Positions 44,850-52,791 of a stretch of DNA of 64,000 nucleotides are shown piece after piece; the first letter of the stretch is position 1, and each line of letters starts with the position of its first letter. Source of the DNA: Caldilineaceae bacterium SB0661_bin_32 (GTDB lineage: Bacteria; Chloroflexota; Anaerolineae; Caldilineales; Caldilineaceae). The notes under the pieces were generated by a model that searched no databases, was not told where the DNA came from, and was given only the letters and a program-made list of their open reading frames with translations. Where the stretch lies: contig VXMH01000055.1 in NCBI GenBank assembly GCA_009841235.1, positions 1-64,000 of the forward strand, in the 5' to 3' direction. Made by a program: the position numbers and the translations under genes.

Positions 44850-45650
44850 TCAATCGAGGAAACAGTAGCAGATCTCCAGCAACTTCTGTCGGGTGGCCAG
44901 GGAACCGACGTATCCTTCAGGCAAAGCCAGTTGGTGAAGGTGACACCCCCTCTTTCGGTGGGCGCTGGCTTCGTCTGAGTCGTGTGCCTGGAGGACGGCA
45001 AGGTCGTCCAAATCGACCTTGCCCGAAAGTAGCTGCAGACCGGCGCCTTCAGCCTTGGCCGTGGCTTCACGTCGTGTCCACGCCCTGAGGAACTCATGGC
45101 TGAGCTCGGGCTCGGCTACGCGTTCGAAATTCTCCACCTCGCGCGGCGGCAAGTCGTGGGATTCCCTCCCGCCCGCAAGCGGGATGGGCCTCAGCCGTTC
45201 GATGTCGATGCCTGGAGGTTCTCCAATGCCGACTCCGAGTACCGCCAGGACGCCCGAATCGGAGAGGCTGAAATGCAGGTCCGTGGAGATTTCGGGGGCG
45301 AGGAGTGGTTTGCCGTGCGGGTTGTATACGAATCTGACATCTTGCGGAGGCTGGTCCAGGTACTGGCCGAGGATACACCGCAGCATGCCGCGTCGGACGA
45401 TGAAGCGGCGTGCCGGCAAGTGCGAAGCGTAGCGCCTGACCCGCCTCCATTCTTCAGTGGACAGCACCTCTTCATATCGGGAGAGGCGCCTCTGATCGAC
45501 ATCCAGGTTCCAGGTCCAGACGTGCAGCACCGTCCCGTCCAGCGGCGGCGCGCCGCAATCTGACCATATGCAGTGCCTCGTTTCCGTGCGAATTAAGGGA
45601 CTGCGCGGCGCCCTTTCCACAGAGGCCCTCCATATCGCCAGTGCCACCAC
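44850..45650 (-). CDS. 4'-phosphopantetheinyl transferase, Sfp type
   Basis: The enzyme attaches phosphopantetheine from CoA to acyl or peptidyl carrier proteins. Motifs present are RFIVRRGMLRCILGQYL, KPLLAPEISTDLHFSLSDSG, GIDIERLRP (Mg-binding Asp-x-Glu) and FLRAWTRREATAKAEGAGL (variant WxxKEA). The ATG at 45650 gives 266 residues and a 58-base overlap with the glycosyltransferase gene. A GTG at 45530 gives 226 residues, nearer to usual PPTase length and beginning just before VLHVWTWNL; it may be the true start. It ends the carotenoid operon. Its carrier protein is not in the window. Confidence 0.88.
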   Translation of the reverse strand: MVALAIWRASVERAPRSPLIRTETRHCIWSDCGAPPLDGTVLHVWTWNLDVDQRRLSRYEEVLSTEEWRRVRRYASHLPARRFIVRRGMLRCILGQYLDQPPQDVRFVYNPHGKPLLAPEISTDLHFSLSDSGVLAVLGVGIGEPPGIDIERLRPIPLAGGRESHDLPPREVENFERVAEPELSHEFLRAWTRREATAKAEGAGLQLLSGKVDLDDLAVLQAHDSDEASAHRKRGCHLHQLALPEGYVGSLATRQKLLEICYCFLD

Positions 45651-46723
45651 AAGGACTGGGCAGCGATAGCGGTCATCAGTAACACCGCAATAGGCAACAG
45701 CGGCGCGTCACCGACGCGTTGCCCCGTGCGCCACGCCGTCAGAGCGCGCACAATGATGCCGGCGCAAACGAGAATCAGCGCCCAGTAAGGATGCCAGGGA
45801 ACGGCCGCGCCCGTGAAGCCAAGCCCGAGCAGTCCCCACGGGACAAGGAAAACGGCCCAGTGGAACACAGTCGCGGCAATCAGGCCGGCGGCGCCGCCAA
45901 AGCCGGCGAGGATGTTCTTCGCATAACCTTCGCGCACAGTGCGCCAGTCGGCGTACATTCGACAGGTGATGAGCCCGTTCGCCTCCGCCATCCGCAGAGA
46001 CAGGCCGACCCCTTTCGCTCGCCGAGCCAGTCCGATGTCATCCAGAATACTGTCTCGCACCGAGGCGTGTCCTCCCAGACTGTTATAGGCGGTTCGGCGA
46101 AATGCGATGCACTGGCCATTGGCCGCTGCCAGCAGGGGGTAACGTGTGCGGTGGACTGCCACCGCCGGCAGGTAGGCGTGGATAGCGAAAGCCATCAGCG
46201 GTACGCAGAGGCGTTCAGGCCAGGAGACCGTCTCCTGGCTTGGCATGATGGCAAGCATATCGGCGCCGGAGCGCCACAATTCGCATAGCAGAGCGGCCAG
46301 GGCGCGAGGGCGCCAGCGCACGTCGGCATCAGCGAAGATGATAATCTCTCCGCTTGCCTCTCCGGCCAGCTGGTGACATGCCCAGTTCTTTGCCAGCCAG
46401 CCGCCGGGTATGGGCTGGCCTTTGAAAACCCGCAGCCGGTTGTCGTTCCCCGAGGCTTCCAATGCAGCTCTGTCAGTGCCGTCTTCAGAACTGTCGTCCA
46501 GGATCAGGATCTCCAGGCAAGGATGGGACTGCTGTAACAGGCTCCTTACCGTTGGTCCAATGACGGCGGCTTCATTTCGCGCCGGGACCAACACAGATAC
46601 GCTGGCAACGATGCCGGAGGCGTTGGAATCCCGTAGATCAGGGAATGTCAGCAGATTTGTCAGCAGGATCACTATCATTCCACAGAGCGCGGCGGAGGCA
46701 AGCAAAAGAAGCAAAGCTGTCAT
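45593..46723 (-). CDS. Glycosyltransferase family 2, CruG/CrtQ-like (carotenoid glycosylation)
   Basis: The 376-residue product is a membrane-associated GT2. It has an N-terminal helix, the GT-A core VSVLVPARNEAAVIGPTVRS, EILILDDSSEDGTDRAAL, the DxD motif IIIFADADVRWRP and C-terminal helices (about four). This layout is shared by CruG of cyanobacteria and CrtQ-type carotenoid glycosyltransferases. Its neighbour cruF and the rest of the locus support addition of a sugar to a hydroxylated carotenoid. It overlaps plsY by four bases at its 5' end. Confidence 0.85.
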   Translation of the reverse strand: MTALLLLLASAALCGMIVILLTNLLTFPDLRDSNASGIVASVSVLVPARNEAAVIGPTVRSLLQQSHPCLEILILDDSSEDGTDRAALEASGNDNRLRVFKGQPIPGGWLAKNWACHQLAGEASGEIIIFADADVRWRPRALAALLCELWRSGADMLAIMPSQETVSWPERLCVPLMAFAIHAYLPAVAVHRTRYPLLAAANGQCIAFRRTAYNSLGGHASVRDSILDDIGLARRAKGVGLSLRMAEANGLITCRMYADWRTVREGYAKNILAGFGGAAGLIAATVFHWAVFLVPWGLLGLGFTGAAVPWHPYWALILVCAGIIVRALTAWRTGQRVGDAPLLPIAVLLMTAIAAQSLWWHWRYGGPLWKGRRAVP

Positions 46724-48166: not shown

Positions 48167-48949
48167 TCACTGGCAAAGTTCACTCTCCCCAAAAAGGAAA
48201 GCCAGAAGCCGTGTGAGCCACGAACAGCGCGGCGCCGATTGTCCGGCTCCAGCAGAATCTGAAAGTGAAGGCTGAGGCTCTTGGGTAGGATCAGTGAGGG
48301 CGGTATCAGGACTGTCGGACTCAGCCGATGGCTGTAGTATTACCGGTGTCCAATACTCTTTCAACTTGCGAGCGAAGGCTGGGTCTCCTCCTGAGACTTC
48401 CCGTTGGCCGACAACGAGAGCGTACCGGCCAGCGGATCCCTGGGGGTGCCAGACGACTACCTTGACTTCGCCCTGGACAGGGAAGGTGATTCGACGGCGT
48501 TGCCGCTGCCAATAGGCGGTACGGCTGAATGGTTCGAAAAAGATCGTAGCGTCAGCCGCCTCCAACACGATGGCTCCTTCTTGGCCGGAGACGAGCGCGC
48601 GGGCGTCGGCTGGCAATCCCGGGTTAGTATCTCCCTCCAGTCCAGAAGCAATCACGCCAATGTAGGGCGCGAACTGGTCCTGTCCCTCGATCTGAGGGAT
48701 GGTCATGCCGATTTCTACGGTCTGACGGGCGGAAACGCTGAAGGTAAAAAAATCGACGTCTCCGGGCCTTTCCAGGGTGGAAAACAGCGCTGTCGAAATC
48801 TCAGGATCGCTGACCGGCATCGGCGTGCCGGCGGTACTGTCCGTGTCCTCGAAAAAAGGTTGGTGTGCCAGGACGGCTTCATAAGAGAATAAGGCGGTGA
48901 ACAGAGTCAACAACAGGATAAGATACCGGGGCGCGGCTGTGACATTCAT
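48167..48949 (-). CDS. Secreted protein of unknown function in the carotenoid operon
   Basis: The 260-residue product has a signal peptide (about residues 1-25, ending FSYEAVLAH). The mature part begins with a DVDFFTFSVSARQTVEIGM strand pattern that recalls bacterial pre-peptidase C-terminal or lectin-like beta domains, then GLEGDTNPGLPADARALV, a further strand WHPQGSAGRYALVVGQREV and a Pro/Ser/Asp-rich tail ending in a hydrophobic segment WLTRLLAFLFG. No enzyme motif is seen. Its start overlaps the lycopene cyclase stop by four bases, so it belongs to the operon. The function is unknown. Confidence 0.7.
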   Translation of the reverse strand: MNVTAAPRYLILLLTLFTALFSYEAVLAHQPFFEDTDSTAGTPMPVSDPEISTALFSTLERPGDVDFFTFSVSARQTVEIGMTIPQIEGQDQFAPYIGVIASGLEGDTNPGLPADARALVSGQEGAIVLEAADATIFFEPFSRTAYWQRQRRRITFPVQGEVKVVVWHPQGSAGRYALVVGQREVSGGDPAFARKLKEYWTPVILQPSAESDSPDTALTDPTQEPQPSLSDSAGAGQSAPRCSWLTRLLAFLFGESELCQ

Positions 48950-49737
48950 TCGACCCTCCTTAGACTGGACGGGATCCATCGGACCCGCCGGTGGCTCTGT
49001 CTGGCGATCACAAGAGTCACGCCAAATACGACCATCGCTGCTGTTAAGAGAAAAAAGACGAACTCTTCCAGCGGAAGAATCCCGCCAAATACGACGCCGA
49101 GCGACTGCTGCGGGTCAATCGTCCAGGTCCCGGTGTGGATGGCAATGGCGTCCGCCAGGGACAAGAAGAGAGTTCCCGCCAGAACTGTCCATAGGACCGG
49201 CCTCCGGTAGAACCAGAGAATGTCGGCGCCGAAAGCCAGCTGAATTGAAAGTGGAACTATCCCCCAGGCCAGTTCCAGCCCCAGGTATCTGCTCTGGGGG
49301 CTTCCTGCGCCCAGCAAGATCAAGGCGTACAGCCAGATGGCCAGAGCCAACCCGGCTGAACCCAGGCGGAGCCGCGGACGCGAACGAAAAGCAAGCTCTG
49401 AAGGCGGCATCAGGCGGGCCGCCGCCAGAAGCGCCAGGCCCAGGAGCACCGTCTGTCCTGCAAAAAACAGGTACTCCTCGAGCGGCACATAGCCGAAAGT
49501 GATGCCGAGTACGAGGTCCGGATCGTACCACCAGACCTTGGTGGCGACGAGAAAGTTGTCCCAGGGCGAGGTGTAGAGAAGTGCCAGCAGCACGTGTGCC
49601 CCGACGACTGGCGTGGCAGGCCATGCCCGCAGCGAAGAGGGAAGCGGCGCCCCTTTTCTGCGAAGCAATGCGTTCAGAACTGCAAAGAAGAGGGCGGGAA
49701 TGCCGATAAAGATTGAGAGGAATGCTAAGTAGGCCAT
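48946..49737 (-). CDS. Lycopene cyclase, fused CrtYc-CrtYd type
   Basis: The 263-residue membrane protein contains two copies of the lycopene cyclase domain: GYVPLEEYLFFAGQTVLLG in the first half and GGILPLEEFVFFLLTAAMVV in the second, both with the Pro-Leu-Glu-Glu motif. Two-domain fusions of the CrtYc and CrtYd subunits are typical of archaea, fungi and some bacteria. The enzyme forms beta-ionone rings on lycopene to give gamma- or beta-carotene. The ATG at 49737 matches the start of the domain; upstream residues to 49863 are extraneous. Confidence 0.88.
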   Translation of the reverse strand: MAYLAFLSIFIGIPALFFAVLNALLRRKGAPLPSSLRAWPATPVVGAHVLLALLYTSPWDNFLVATKVWWYDPDLVLGITFGYVPLEEYLFFAGQTVLLGLALLAAARLMPPSELAFRSRPRLRLGSAGLALAIWLYALILLGAGSPQSRYLGLELAWGIVPLSIQLAFGADILWFYRRPVLWTVLAGTLFLSLADAIAIHTGTWTIDPQQSLGVVFGGILPLEEFVFFLLTAAMVVFGVTLVIARQSHRRVRWIPSSLRRVE

Positions 49738-49825: not shown

Positions 49826-51193
49826 CTAGCGCTCGCTGTAACACTGCCGCACGTCCCTGCCAAGAGTCTCCAACATGCTGACGATGGGGTAGCCTTCGAC
49901 GCCGAGAACCGTCTGGACTGCAGAGATGCCTAGATTCAGATAATCTTCCAGCATCGCCAGAGGGATGCTTCGGGACTCCAGAAAGGTACTAATCCATTCA
50001 GCTTCCAATGAGACCAGCGTAGGGTCGCCTAAACGCAGCGCTGACATCATCGCGCTGTTGATGCTGTAGGAAGGCCGACCCAGCCTCGCCCATTCGAGAG
50101 GCGTTCCCCGCTCCGAATTTAATACGAGTGCCGAGATTCTATGCAGGTGGGCTCGATAGCTGGAAATAAGGTCTTCGAATCTGTTTATCGGAGGCGCTGT
50201 GCTGGCTAGGTGGCCCGGTATTGCCAGCAAGGATTCGACTCTGCTTCCGGCCTGAAGAAGATCGGGCCCCAGAAAATTCCCGGGAACATTGCGCCGGATG
50301 ACTTCAGAGAGATTGAATATGCGTCCTCCAAATGCAACGGGAACACTTTGCCGGTTAATCAACTCGCTCATTTCCATCAGATTCCCCGCTGACCGAAGTT
50401 GCTGGGAAACGAGCACGACGAGGTCGGGCCGGATTCTGGAAAGCGTTACTTCCATCTCGCTCAGTGAGAGATTCTCTCCCAGAAAGACGGTCCCAAACCC
50501 CTTCCGTTTGAGGATGAGTTGAAGTAGCGCCAAGCCGAAAGTGTGATGCTCTCCATGCGGACAAGCCATCAATACGAGACCGGGTCTTGTGGGGGGAGGG
50601 CAAGCGCCCAGCAGGACCTTGATGCGTTGCATCGCCTGGGAGGTGGCAAAGGAAACCTGCTGAGTGGTCACTCTGTCGGCGTGCCACTCCTCTCCCAGCT
50701 GGCGTAGTCCACTGCAGAGAACGTGAATGCAGACGGTTTCGACGGGAAATCGGGCAAAAGCCTGGGTAAGAATGCGCTGTGCTCCAAATTCATCGAACCC
50801 GGTGCACGCCGATGTCCACTCAGAGCAGGCAGCTGTAACCTGGTCGTCGACAAAATCGCTTTCCCCGCCTTCGACAAGCGCGGCTTCCGACCAAAGGTTT
50901 CCATAAAAGTACTGGTCAGAAGCAATTTCTTGCTCCTGGAGAGGGTCTCTCCCCTCACTCTCCAATGTCTGCCAGCGTTCAGCGGCCCGGCTGATACTGA
51001 GGCCCTCCAACCGGCGCTGTTTCAACCAGCGGAGAGTGTCGATGTCACGCCGTGAGTAGAGGCGGTGCCCGCCGGAACTGCGTGCCGGACGGGGAATACC
51101 GTATCGGCGTTCCCAAGCCCGTAAAGTCTCCGCCTTTATGCCCGTCTCGCGGACAACGGCTTTCAGATTGAAGGACGGCGATTCCGTACTCAT
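49826..51193 (-). CDS. MerR family regulator with B12-binding domain, CarH/LitR-like
   Basis: The 455-residue protein has an N-terminal MerR helix-turn-helix (residues 8-75, TGIKAETLRAWERRYGIP). A B12-binding unit follows (about residues 95-325): Trp170-His171 (EEWH), and the cobalamin motif E215-H-H217-x-x-G220, then GG at 289-290. In CarH a Glu-His pair follows the Trp after nine residues (Wx9EH); here those positions (180-181) are Val-Ser. About 130 residues after the B12 domain (326-455) are an extra helical region not found in CarH. By context it regulates carotenoid genes by light or cobalamin. The ATG at 51193 fits homology. Confidence 0.87.
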   Translation of the reverse strand: MSTESPSFNLKAVVRETGIKAETLRAWERRYGIPRPARSSGGHRLYSRRDIDTLRWLKQRRLEGLSISRAAERWQTLESEGRDPLQEQEIASDQYFYGNLWSEAALVEGGESDFVDDQVTAACSEWTSACTGFDEFGAQRILTQAFARFPVETVCIHVLCSGLRQLGEEWHADRVTTQQVSFATSQAMQRIKVLLGACPPPTRPGLVLMACPHGEHHTFGLALLQLILKRKGFGTVFLGENLSLSEMEVTLSRIRPDLVVLVSQQLRSAGNLMEMSELINRQSVPVAFGGRIFNLSEVIRRNVPGNFLGPDLLQAGSRVESLLAIPGHLASTAPPINRFEDLISSYRAHLHRISALVLNSERGTPLEWARLGRPSYSINSAMMSALRLGDPTLVSLEAEWISTFLESRSIPLAMLEDYLNLGISAVQTVLGVEGYPIVSMLETLGRDVRQCYSER

Positions 51194-51221
51194 TTGTACA
51201 TGTACTCCCTCGTACTTGTAC
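51186..51221. promoter_or_regulatory. GTAC repeat array, candidate CarH operator
   Basis: GTAC tetramers occur at 51186, 51196, 51202, 51212 and 51218. The pairs at 51196/51202 and 51212/51218 form two copies of GTACnTGTAC exactly 16 bases apart. They overlap the 5' end and upstream of the carH-like gene, as expected for an autoregulated MerR operator. This is inferred from the pattern only. Confidence 0.5.
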
Positions 51222-51780: not shown

Positions 51781-52791
51781 GTGAGCAAAGGCGCTCTGAT
51801 GACTCTGAAGATCCGCGACTGGGAGCGTCCTCTGCTCTCACTCGCGTATGAAGCCGGGCAGGTGTATGGTCCACTACCGCTTCCCAAGGTCAGGGACAAG
51901 AAGGAGTTGGACAAGGCCTACGAGTTCTGTGAAGCGGTAACTGCGGTGAACAGCCGTTCCTTCTTTACCGCCTCTCGTTTCCTCCCACGGGAGAAGCGAA
52001 GGTCGGTGCGAGCCCTCTACGCATTTTGTCGCAAGAGCGACGACATAGTCGACAAGCCGCCCAGCGGGCGCGGCGACCCTGATGCTGTGCGTGACGCACT
52101 TGCATCCTGGCAGTCGCGCTCTCTCGCGCAGAAGGCTGACGGAAAGGATCCCGTGATCTTGGCGTGGTCTGACGCCCGGCGGCAGCATGGTATTCCGCCG
52201 CGCTACGCCGAGCAGCTCATCCAGGGTGTCGCCCGGGACATTACTGTCAGGCGCTACCAGACGTTCGCGGACTTGACCAGCTATTGCTACGGCGTTGCTG
52301 TAACCGTTGGGCTTATGAGCATGCACATCGTTGGCTTCACCGGTGTTGATGCCATTCCCTACGCGCTCAAGTTGGGCGTGGCGTTGCAGTTGACGAATGT
52401 CCTCAGAGATGTGGGGGAGGATTGGGAGGCCGGGCGGCTCTATCTTCCTCTGGACGAATTACGCAAATTCGGCCTCGACGAGAAGGACATAGAGGCTGGC
52501 GTCGTTGACGATCGCTGGCGGGCGTTTATGCGGTTCCAGATTGGGCGGACTCGTCAACTCTATAGCGAAGCCTGGCCGGGGATTGCGCTGCTTCACGCGG
52601 ACGGCCGTTTCGCAATAGCCGCTGCAGCCGGACTCTACCGTGCAATTCTCGCTGATATCGAAGCGCACGATTACGATGTCTTTTCCAGGCGCGCCCATGT
52701 CAGTACGTGGGGCAAGCTGAGACGGCTTCCGGCGATCTGGTGGAGCAGCAAGACGATTCGTGGCCCAATGACGAACAGCGGGGCTGTGTAG
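51781..52791 (+). CDS. crtB: Phytoene synthase
   Basis: CrtB condenses two geranylgeranyl diphosphates to phytoene, the first carotenoid step. The product (336 residues from the GTG at 51781) has the squalene/phytoene synthase motifs: [24 protein letters not shown] (first Asp-rich motif), [12 protein letters not shown] and [22 protein letters not shown] (second Asp-rich motif). The GTG has GAAGGGA upstream; an ATG at 51799 and a TTG at 51748 are alternatives. It is divergent from the carH-like gene. Phytoene desaturase (crtI) is not in the window. Confidence 0.93.

What the first reader, a model, noticed from the sequence alone, without database searches (positions are those of the whole stretch)
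49826..51193. CarH-like regulator lacking the Glu-His of Wx9EH and with a C-terminal extension
Trp170-His171 and the cobalamin ExHxxG (215-220) are kept, but the Glu-His nine residues after Trp is Val-Ser. In CarH those residues help hold and shield adenosylcobalamin in the light-sensing state. About 130 extra residues follow the B12 domain. The regulator may use another cobalamin form, respond differently to light, or sense a further signal.
Basis: partly seen in the sequence, partly recalled or inferred. Interest (0 to 1): 0.6.

Follow-up and report, generated by a model that had tools for sequence, protein, structure and literature searches.

The report
Carotenoid regulator with altered vitamin-B12 pocket
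This gene encodes a CarH-like DNA-binding regulator next to carotenoid genes that has lost, across its whole bacterial genus, the two residues that hold light-sensitive coenzyme B12, and that carries an extra tail shaped like the pigment-binding proteins of cyanobacteria, so it probably senses something other than what textbook CarH senses.

Summary
The 455-residue protein (window 49826-51193, minus strand) aligns without gaps to Thermus CarH across the motif. Trp170-His171 and the B12 motif E215-x-H217-x2-G220 are kept, but Glu-His is Val180-Ser181. The loss is real and lineage-specific: all 15 copies found among the 17 genomes of its genus lack the Glu (14 have V+S/A/T, one has VH). All 29 relatives outside the genus in the tree, both the long form and the canonical CarH length, keep EH. 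One change on the tree explains it.

It is a phycobiliprotein/photoglobin-type globin, as in the photocobilins (SasPcob, AbDPcob). The protein is therefore a MerR + CarH-type B12 module + globin, divergent from crtB and first in a carotenoid operon.

Two features set it apart. Val180 is what methionine synthase has at that position (Val718). The bilin-anchoring Asp of SasPcob is absent, and no canonical heme oxygenase was found in 61 relatives.

Most likely it is a repressor-type carotenoid regulator that still binds cobalamin through His217 but no longer uses the adenosyl group as CarH does. Ligand and light response are untested. New variant of a known kind.

The parts
49826..51193 (-). Regulator CDS, 455 aa: MerR HTH + CarH-type B12 module + phycobiliprotein-like globin
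50963..51172 (-). MerR-type winged-helix DNA-binding domain (residues 8-77), with the RxWERRY recognition helix
   Evidence: Pfam MerR_1 E=1.6e-13; CarH/CarA alignments
50603..50860 (-). Four-helix bundle, B12-binding_2 (residues 112-197)
   Evidence: Pfam PF02607 E=4.3e-6
50651..50686 (-). Former Wx9EH motif: W170-H171 ... V180-S181
50219..50581 (-). Rossmann B12-binding domain (residues 205-325)
   Evidence: Pfam PF02310 E=5.5e-8
50534..50551 (-). Lower-axial B12 motif E215-x-H217-x2-G220, kept in all 15 genus copies
49829..50188 (-). C-terminal phycobiliprotein/photoglobin-like globin domain (residues 336-455)
   Evidence: AlphaFold pLDDT 87, pTM 0.83; top matches allophycocyanin Z 13.3, SasPcob photocobilin Z 11.3; profile hits
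49994..49996 (-). W400 codon, aligned with SasPcob globin Trp296 (which contacts the corrin ring and BV ring D)
   Evidence: PMC10979010
51195..51221 (-). Candidate autoregulatory operator GTACAAGTAC-N6-GTACATGTAC(A), an inverted repeat at -28 to -2 of the ATG; kept in 14 genus members, only complete copy in the genome
51266..51295 (-). Putative promoter of the regulator operon: TTTGTT-18-TAGTAT, the best conserved upstream block besides the operator; seen by eye, not reported by the promoter scan
   Evidence: conservation; one search does not list it
51784..52791 (+). crtB, phytoene synthase, divergent from the regulator (start codon uncertain)
   Evidence: Pfam SQS_PSY E=6.7e-76; NCBIfam CrtB E=2.4e-74, below its cut-off
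48946..49737 (-). Fused CarR-type lycopene cyclase (two cyclase domains), directly downstream of the regulator
   Evidence: TIGR03462 E=8.8e-33, PF18916
47304..48176 (-). CruF-like carotenoid hydratase
   Evidence: PF04240 E=1.5e-34; TIGR03460 below its cut-off
45593..46723 (-). CruG/HpnB-like glycosyltransferase
   Evidence: both NCBIfam matches are below their cut-offs

Best explanation
It is a MerR-family carotenoid regulator of photocobilin-like architecture (DNA-binding domain, CarH-type cobalamin module, phycobiliprotein-like globin). SHOWN by sequence or model: architecture, genomic position, conserved inverted repeat at its own start codon, loss of the Glu-His cap once at the base of the genus, retention of the B12-coordinating motif. 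INFERRED: the protein still binds a cobalamin base-off/His-on through His217, but the adenosyl group of coenzyme B12 is no longer the specific ligand or switch. The Glu that contacts the adenosyl group in CarH-type modules is replaced by the valine that methionine synthase has at this place, and the His by a small residue. The pocket therefore suits a small or no upper ligand (methyl-, aquo/hydroxo-, or a bis-His form through His171). The protein binds its palindromic operator as a dimer, more like CarA than like tetrameric CarH on direct repeats, and represses its own carotenoid operon. Cobalamin state, and possibly a ligand or light at the globin packed on the corrin through Trp400, sets the activity.
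For: Gapless EH-to-VS, fixed in all 15 genus copies, one change on the tree. E215, H217, G220, G289, G290 and W170 kept in the genus. MetH F708-x9-V718 is in gapless register with W170-x9-V180. C-domain: the only PDB profile hit at E<=10 is photocobilin 8J2Y (weak, E=1.1); the larger profile aligns in order through the globin of 8J2Y and, as a weak second stretch, of 8J2W/X; AlphaFold model pLDDT 87 matches allophycocyanin (Z 13.3), smURFP (12.7) and SasPcob (11.3). Corrinoid adenosyltransferase family present in all 17 genus genomes, so cobalamin is handled. Synteny with the carotenoid genes. Inverted-repeat operator. MeCbl binds Thermus CarH but leaves it largely monomeric (PMC8221060), so upper-ligand identity can decide oligomer state.
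Against: No binding data. The E-to-V match with MetH is one residue. The full-length AlphaFold model was poor (pLDDT 54.7), so the B12 pocket was not modelled. EH loss could be relaxation rather than retuning. The operator is inferred from conservation only and overlaps the ribosome-binding site; its role could be translational. The GTAC element is missing upstream of the VH copy (L015). His171, the candidate bis-His ligand, is Leu in two genus copies (L013, L014).
Confidence: 0.42

Rival explanations
1. CarA-like degeneration: the B12 module is now only a dimerisation scaffold. The protein represses without cobalamin, and derepression comes from a partner protein or from a ligand of the globin domain.
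For: Myxococcus CarA is the precedent: it keeps the B12 motif, has a damaged Wx9EH, is a dimer on inverted repeats and works without B12 (PMC8156234, PMC9304148). The operator here is an inverted repeat.
Against: W170, E215, H217, G220 and the GG pair are kept and Val180 is invariant across 15 species with sequence identity down to about 51%, which suggests a working pocket. No CarS-like partner was sought.
Confidence: 0.28
2. Still an AdoCbl green-light photoreceptor: the globin domain shields the corrin edge, as in photocobilins, and makes up for the lost Glu-His.
For: In photocobilins the globin covers the corrin edge (PMC10979010). W400 matches the corrin-contacting Trp296, and W170 stays.
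Against: Both characterised photocobilins keep EH (PMC10979010), and so do the long-form relatives outside this genus. Having the globin does not by itself make EH dispensable.
Confidence: 0.17
3. The globin now carries the light sensing by a bilin, and the B12 module is secondary.
For: Phycobiliprotein fold, with matches to BV-bound smURFP and SasPcob.
Against: No heme oxygenase PF01126 in 61 relatives and no bilin reductase PF05996 in the own genome. The SasPcob Asp270 position is not a conserved Asp in the family. Bilin could still come from neighbours or from another enzyme family; not tested.
Confidence: 0.1

Closest known systems
Photocobilins SasPcob (8J2W/8J2X) and AbDPcob/AbPcob (8J2Y), PMC10979010
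   Same: CarH-type B12 module followed by a phycobiliprotein-like globin in the same order; Trp of Wx9EH and lower-axial His kept; globin Trp296 matched by W400
   Different: Those keep Glu-His and act alone or with a diguanylate cyclase; this one has an N-terminal MerR DNA-binding domain, lacks Glu-His, and lacks the BV-anchoring Asp (also lost, to His, in AbDPcob)
Thermus CarH (5C8D, 3WHP)
   Same: MerR domain, B12 module, W131-H132, H177, carotenoid context
   Different: No Glu-His, extra globin domain, palindromic rather than tandem direct-repeat operator, R176-D201 dimer salt-bridge pair not kept (H216, N241)
Myxococcus CarA, PMC8156234 and PMC9304148
   Same: Degenerate Wx9EH with intact B12 motif; carotenoid repressor; inverted-repeat operator
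   Different: CarA lost the Trp and kept EH; here the Trp is kept and EH lost. No globin domain is described for CarA
Methionine synthase cap/cobalamin domains (E. coli MetH)
   Same: F708-x9-V718 is in register with W170-x9-V180
   Different: Enzyme, not a regulator; otherwise distant

Membership tests
CarH (AdoCbl photoreceptor-repressor) | MerR DNA-binding domain with RxWERRY | tested here: met
   LRAWERRYG
CarH (AdoCbl photoreceptor-repressor) | B12 motif D/ExHx2G ... SxT/V ... GG | tested here: met
   E215-x-H217-x2-G220 and GG289-290 present; the SxT/V part is S263-Q-Q, so only partly matched
CarH (AdoCbl photoreceptor-repressor) | Intact Wx9EH | tested here: not met
   W170-x9-V180-S181
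CarH (AdoCbl photoreceptor-repressor) | NCBIfam CarH equivalog NF052513 at cut-off | tested here: not met
   117.6 bits against a cut-off of 400; this cut-off may be narrow
CarH (AdoCbl photoreceptor-repressor) | AdoCbl-dependent oligomerisation reversed by light | not testable with these tools
   needs purified protein
Photocobilin | CarH-type B12 module fused to a photoglobin/phycobiliprotein-like globin | tested here: met
Photocobilin | Trp-EH cap (as in SasPcob and AbDPcob) | tested here: not met
Photocobilin | BV-anchoring Asp (SasPcob Asp270) | tested here: inconclusive
   no conserved Asp at the aligned position or close to it (P374/S375 in this protein, exact register uncertain by about 2); AbDPcob itself has His there and binds BV weakly
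Photocobilin | Binds AdoCbl and biliverdin | not testable with these tools
   no canonical heme oxygenase in 61 relatives, which argues against but does not exclude BV
[quoted passage not shown]
   the opposite pattern is seen

The most novel reading that the evidence does not exclude
A transcription-factor photocobilin in which the adenosyl-sensing cap has been replaced by a methionine-synthase-like cap. Carotenoid genes would then be controlled by methyl- or hydroxocobalamin (or by a bilin/B12 pair) instead of by coenzyme B12 photolysis. This would be a second way for the CarH fold to read cobalamin.
Probability: 0.3. Interest if true: 0.75.

Novelty: new variant of a known kind. Interest (0 to 1): 0.52.

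Why it matters
CarH is the reference B12 photoreceptor, and its Wx9EH motif is used to define and mine such sensors, so proteins like this one fall outside those searches. A whole genus that lost only the Glu-His cap while keeping the rest of the B12-binding motif, beside sister lineages that keep it, is a natural experiment on what the cap does and on how a light sensor can change its ligand. It also gives MerR-type transcription factors with a photocobilin core, next to carotenoid genes, to test in the laboratory.

Tried and rejected
(1) Indel-shifted EH: rejected, gapless in all copies. (2) Sequencing or assembly error: rejected, fixed in 15 separate assemblies. (4) Pfam on the C-terminal domain: nothing credible. 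(5) phmmer with the single C-terminal sequence: nothing credible; only profiles and the fold model worked. (6) hhalign of the C-domain profile against two photocobilin fragments: 41% probability over 49 columns, supportive only. (7) A bilin source: no canonical heme oxygenase or bilin reductase found. (8) The operator as part of a wider regulon: no second complete copy in the genome; matches with 3 mismatches are no more frequent than in the control pattern. (9) The photoglobin paper (PMC8717448) is not held and could not be read, so whether MerR-B12-photoglobin fusions were listed there is not known to me first hand. (10) The R176-D201 dimer pair is also not kept in the EH-bearing relatives, so it says nothing specific about the EH loss.

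Full report
WHAT IT IS. The window comes from a Caldilineaceae genome (Chloroflexota): the closest named records found are Caldilineaceae metagenome-assembled genomes. The ORF at 49826-51193, minus strand, encodes 455 aa with Pfam MerR, B12-binding_2 and B12-binding domains. Thermus CarH is the best single-sequence match in the PDB. NCBIfam's CarH model matches far below its cut-off (117.6 against 400 bits).

THE OBSERVATION. CarH W131-x9-E141-H142 aligns without gaps to W170-x9-V180-S181. I collected relatives from 61 genomes, and later from the 46 held genomes of the order. In the genus, 15 of 17 genomes have the gene, one full-length copy each; all 15 have Val at the Glu position, followed by Ser (11), Ala (2), Thr (1) or His (1). 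Relatives outside the genus, long form and canonical length alike, read EH; the exceptions are one decayed paralogue (L055) and one fragment without this region (L054), both left out of the tree. On a tree built with these two columns masked, 'EH' against 'not EH' needs one change, on a branch with 100% SH-aLRT. The VH copy (L015) branches first within the genus, which fits Glu being lost before His. Of the two genus genomes without the gene, one also lacks crtB, and the other has crtB with an internal TAG.

THE EXTENSION. The C-terminal ~130 residues are conserved in the genus and, more loosely, in the relatives outside it. A profile of this domain alone has one match in the whole PDB at E<=10: the globin part of photocobilin AbPcob, 8J2Y (E=1.1). 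A profile of B12 module plus extension has photocobilins as its three best PDB hits; it aligns continuously through the globin of 8J2Y (E=3.6e-22 for the whole) and picks up the same part of 8J2W/X as a weak second stretch. An AlphaFold model of the domain (13 genus sequences) has pLDDT 87 and pTM 0.83. Its structural neighbours are allophycocyanins (Z up to 13.3), BV-binding smURFP (12.7) and SasPcob (11.3, highest sequence identity of the rows shown, 16%); Foldseek gives phycobiliproteins and other globins with weak E-values (0.12 and above) but probabilities near 1 for the phycobiliproteins. Helical domains often give middling Z, so the fold call rests on the agreement of fold, profile and domain order. 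Photocobilins are described in PMC10979010: B12 module plus photoglobin, both chromophores touching, Trp296 of the globin bonded to the corrin, Asp270 anchoring biliverdin. In this family Trp296 matches W400 (nearly invariant), while no Asp is conserved at or near the Asp270 position.

CONTEXT. The regulator is divergent from crtB and precedes a lycopene cyclase, a conserved protein of unknown function (48167-48979), a CruF-like hydratase, an acyltransferase-like gene (46720 on; named by eye only), a CruG/HpnB-like glycosyltransferase and a phosphopantetheinyl transferase. The order is the same in the genus loci where enough DNA was held, and crtB lies close to the gene in about half of the outside relatives examined. 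Directly before the start codon lies GTACAAGTAC-N6-GTACATGTAC, a 26-bp inverted repeat kept in 14 genus members while much of the DNA upstream of it drifts; it has no second complete copy in the genome. It contains TGTACA, in line with the TnnACA core of CarH repeats (PMC9304148), but is an inverted rather than a tandem repeat. It covers the ribosome-binding site, so a role in translation is not excluded. A conserved TTTGTT-18-TAGTAT upstream may be the promoter; the promoter scan did not report it.

HOW IT MAY WORK. Wx9EH caps the adenosyl group in CarH and is said to be absolutely conserved in the CarH proteins studied (PMC8156234). MeCbl binds Thermus CarH but leaves it largely monomeric (PMC8221060), so the upper ligand decides the oligomer. 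Here Glu is replaced by Val. In E. coli MetH, F708-x9-V718 lies in gapless register with W170-x9-V180; from memory, not checked, these MetH residues face the upper side of methylcobalamin. All 17 genus genomes carry a corrinoid adenosyltransferase family member, so cobalamin is in use. The most economical reading is a cobalamin-binding regulator that no longer depends on the adenosyl group. The CarA precedent (B12-independent repressor, PMC8156234) is the main rival. A bilin at the globin is not excluded, but no PF01126 heme oxygenase was found in 61 relatives and no PF05996 bilin reductase in the own genome.

MEMBERSHIP. It is not a CarH by the accepted definition, because Wx9EH was tested and not met. 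It has the photocobilin architecture but departs from both characterised photocobilins in lacking Glu-His. I file it as a new variant: a MerR-photocobilin-like regulator with a remodelled upper pocket.

LIMITS. The relatives are genome assemblies without experiments. The full-length model failed, so no pocket geometry is claimed. Only loci of the permitted kinds were sent to structure prediction. The photoglobin paper was not readable here.

Noticed in passing
L055 (G018:C196:19281-19994): A canonical-length CarH-like paralogue that has lost the Trp, the Glu-His and the lower-axial His: a decayed CarH in a related genus.
   Followed up: no
G003:C1:4882871-4883851: crtB with an internal TAG in a 99%-complete single-contig genome of the same genus that has no copy of the regulator; possibly a decaying carotenoid locus.
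   Followed up: partly
window 44850-45650 (-): A 4'-phosphopantetheinyl transferase gene ends the carotenoid operon in the genus; its link to carotenoid glycosides is unexplained.
   Followed up: no
window 48167-48979 (-): A conserved protein of unknown function lies between the lycopene cyclase and CruF-like genes in the genus loci examined and beside the regulator in some outside relatives.
   Followed up: no
window 51195-51221: The conserved inverted repeat overlaps the ribosome-binding site and could also fold in the mRNA; a translational role is possible.
   Followed up: no
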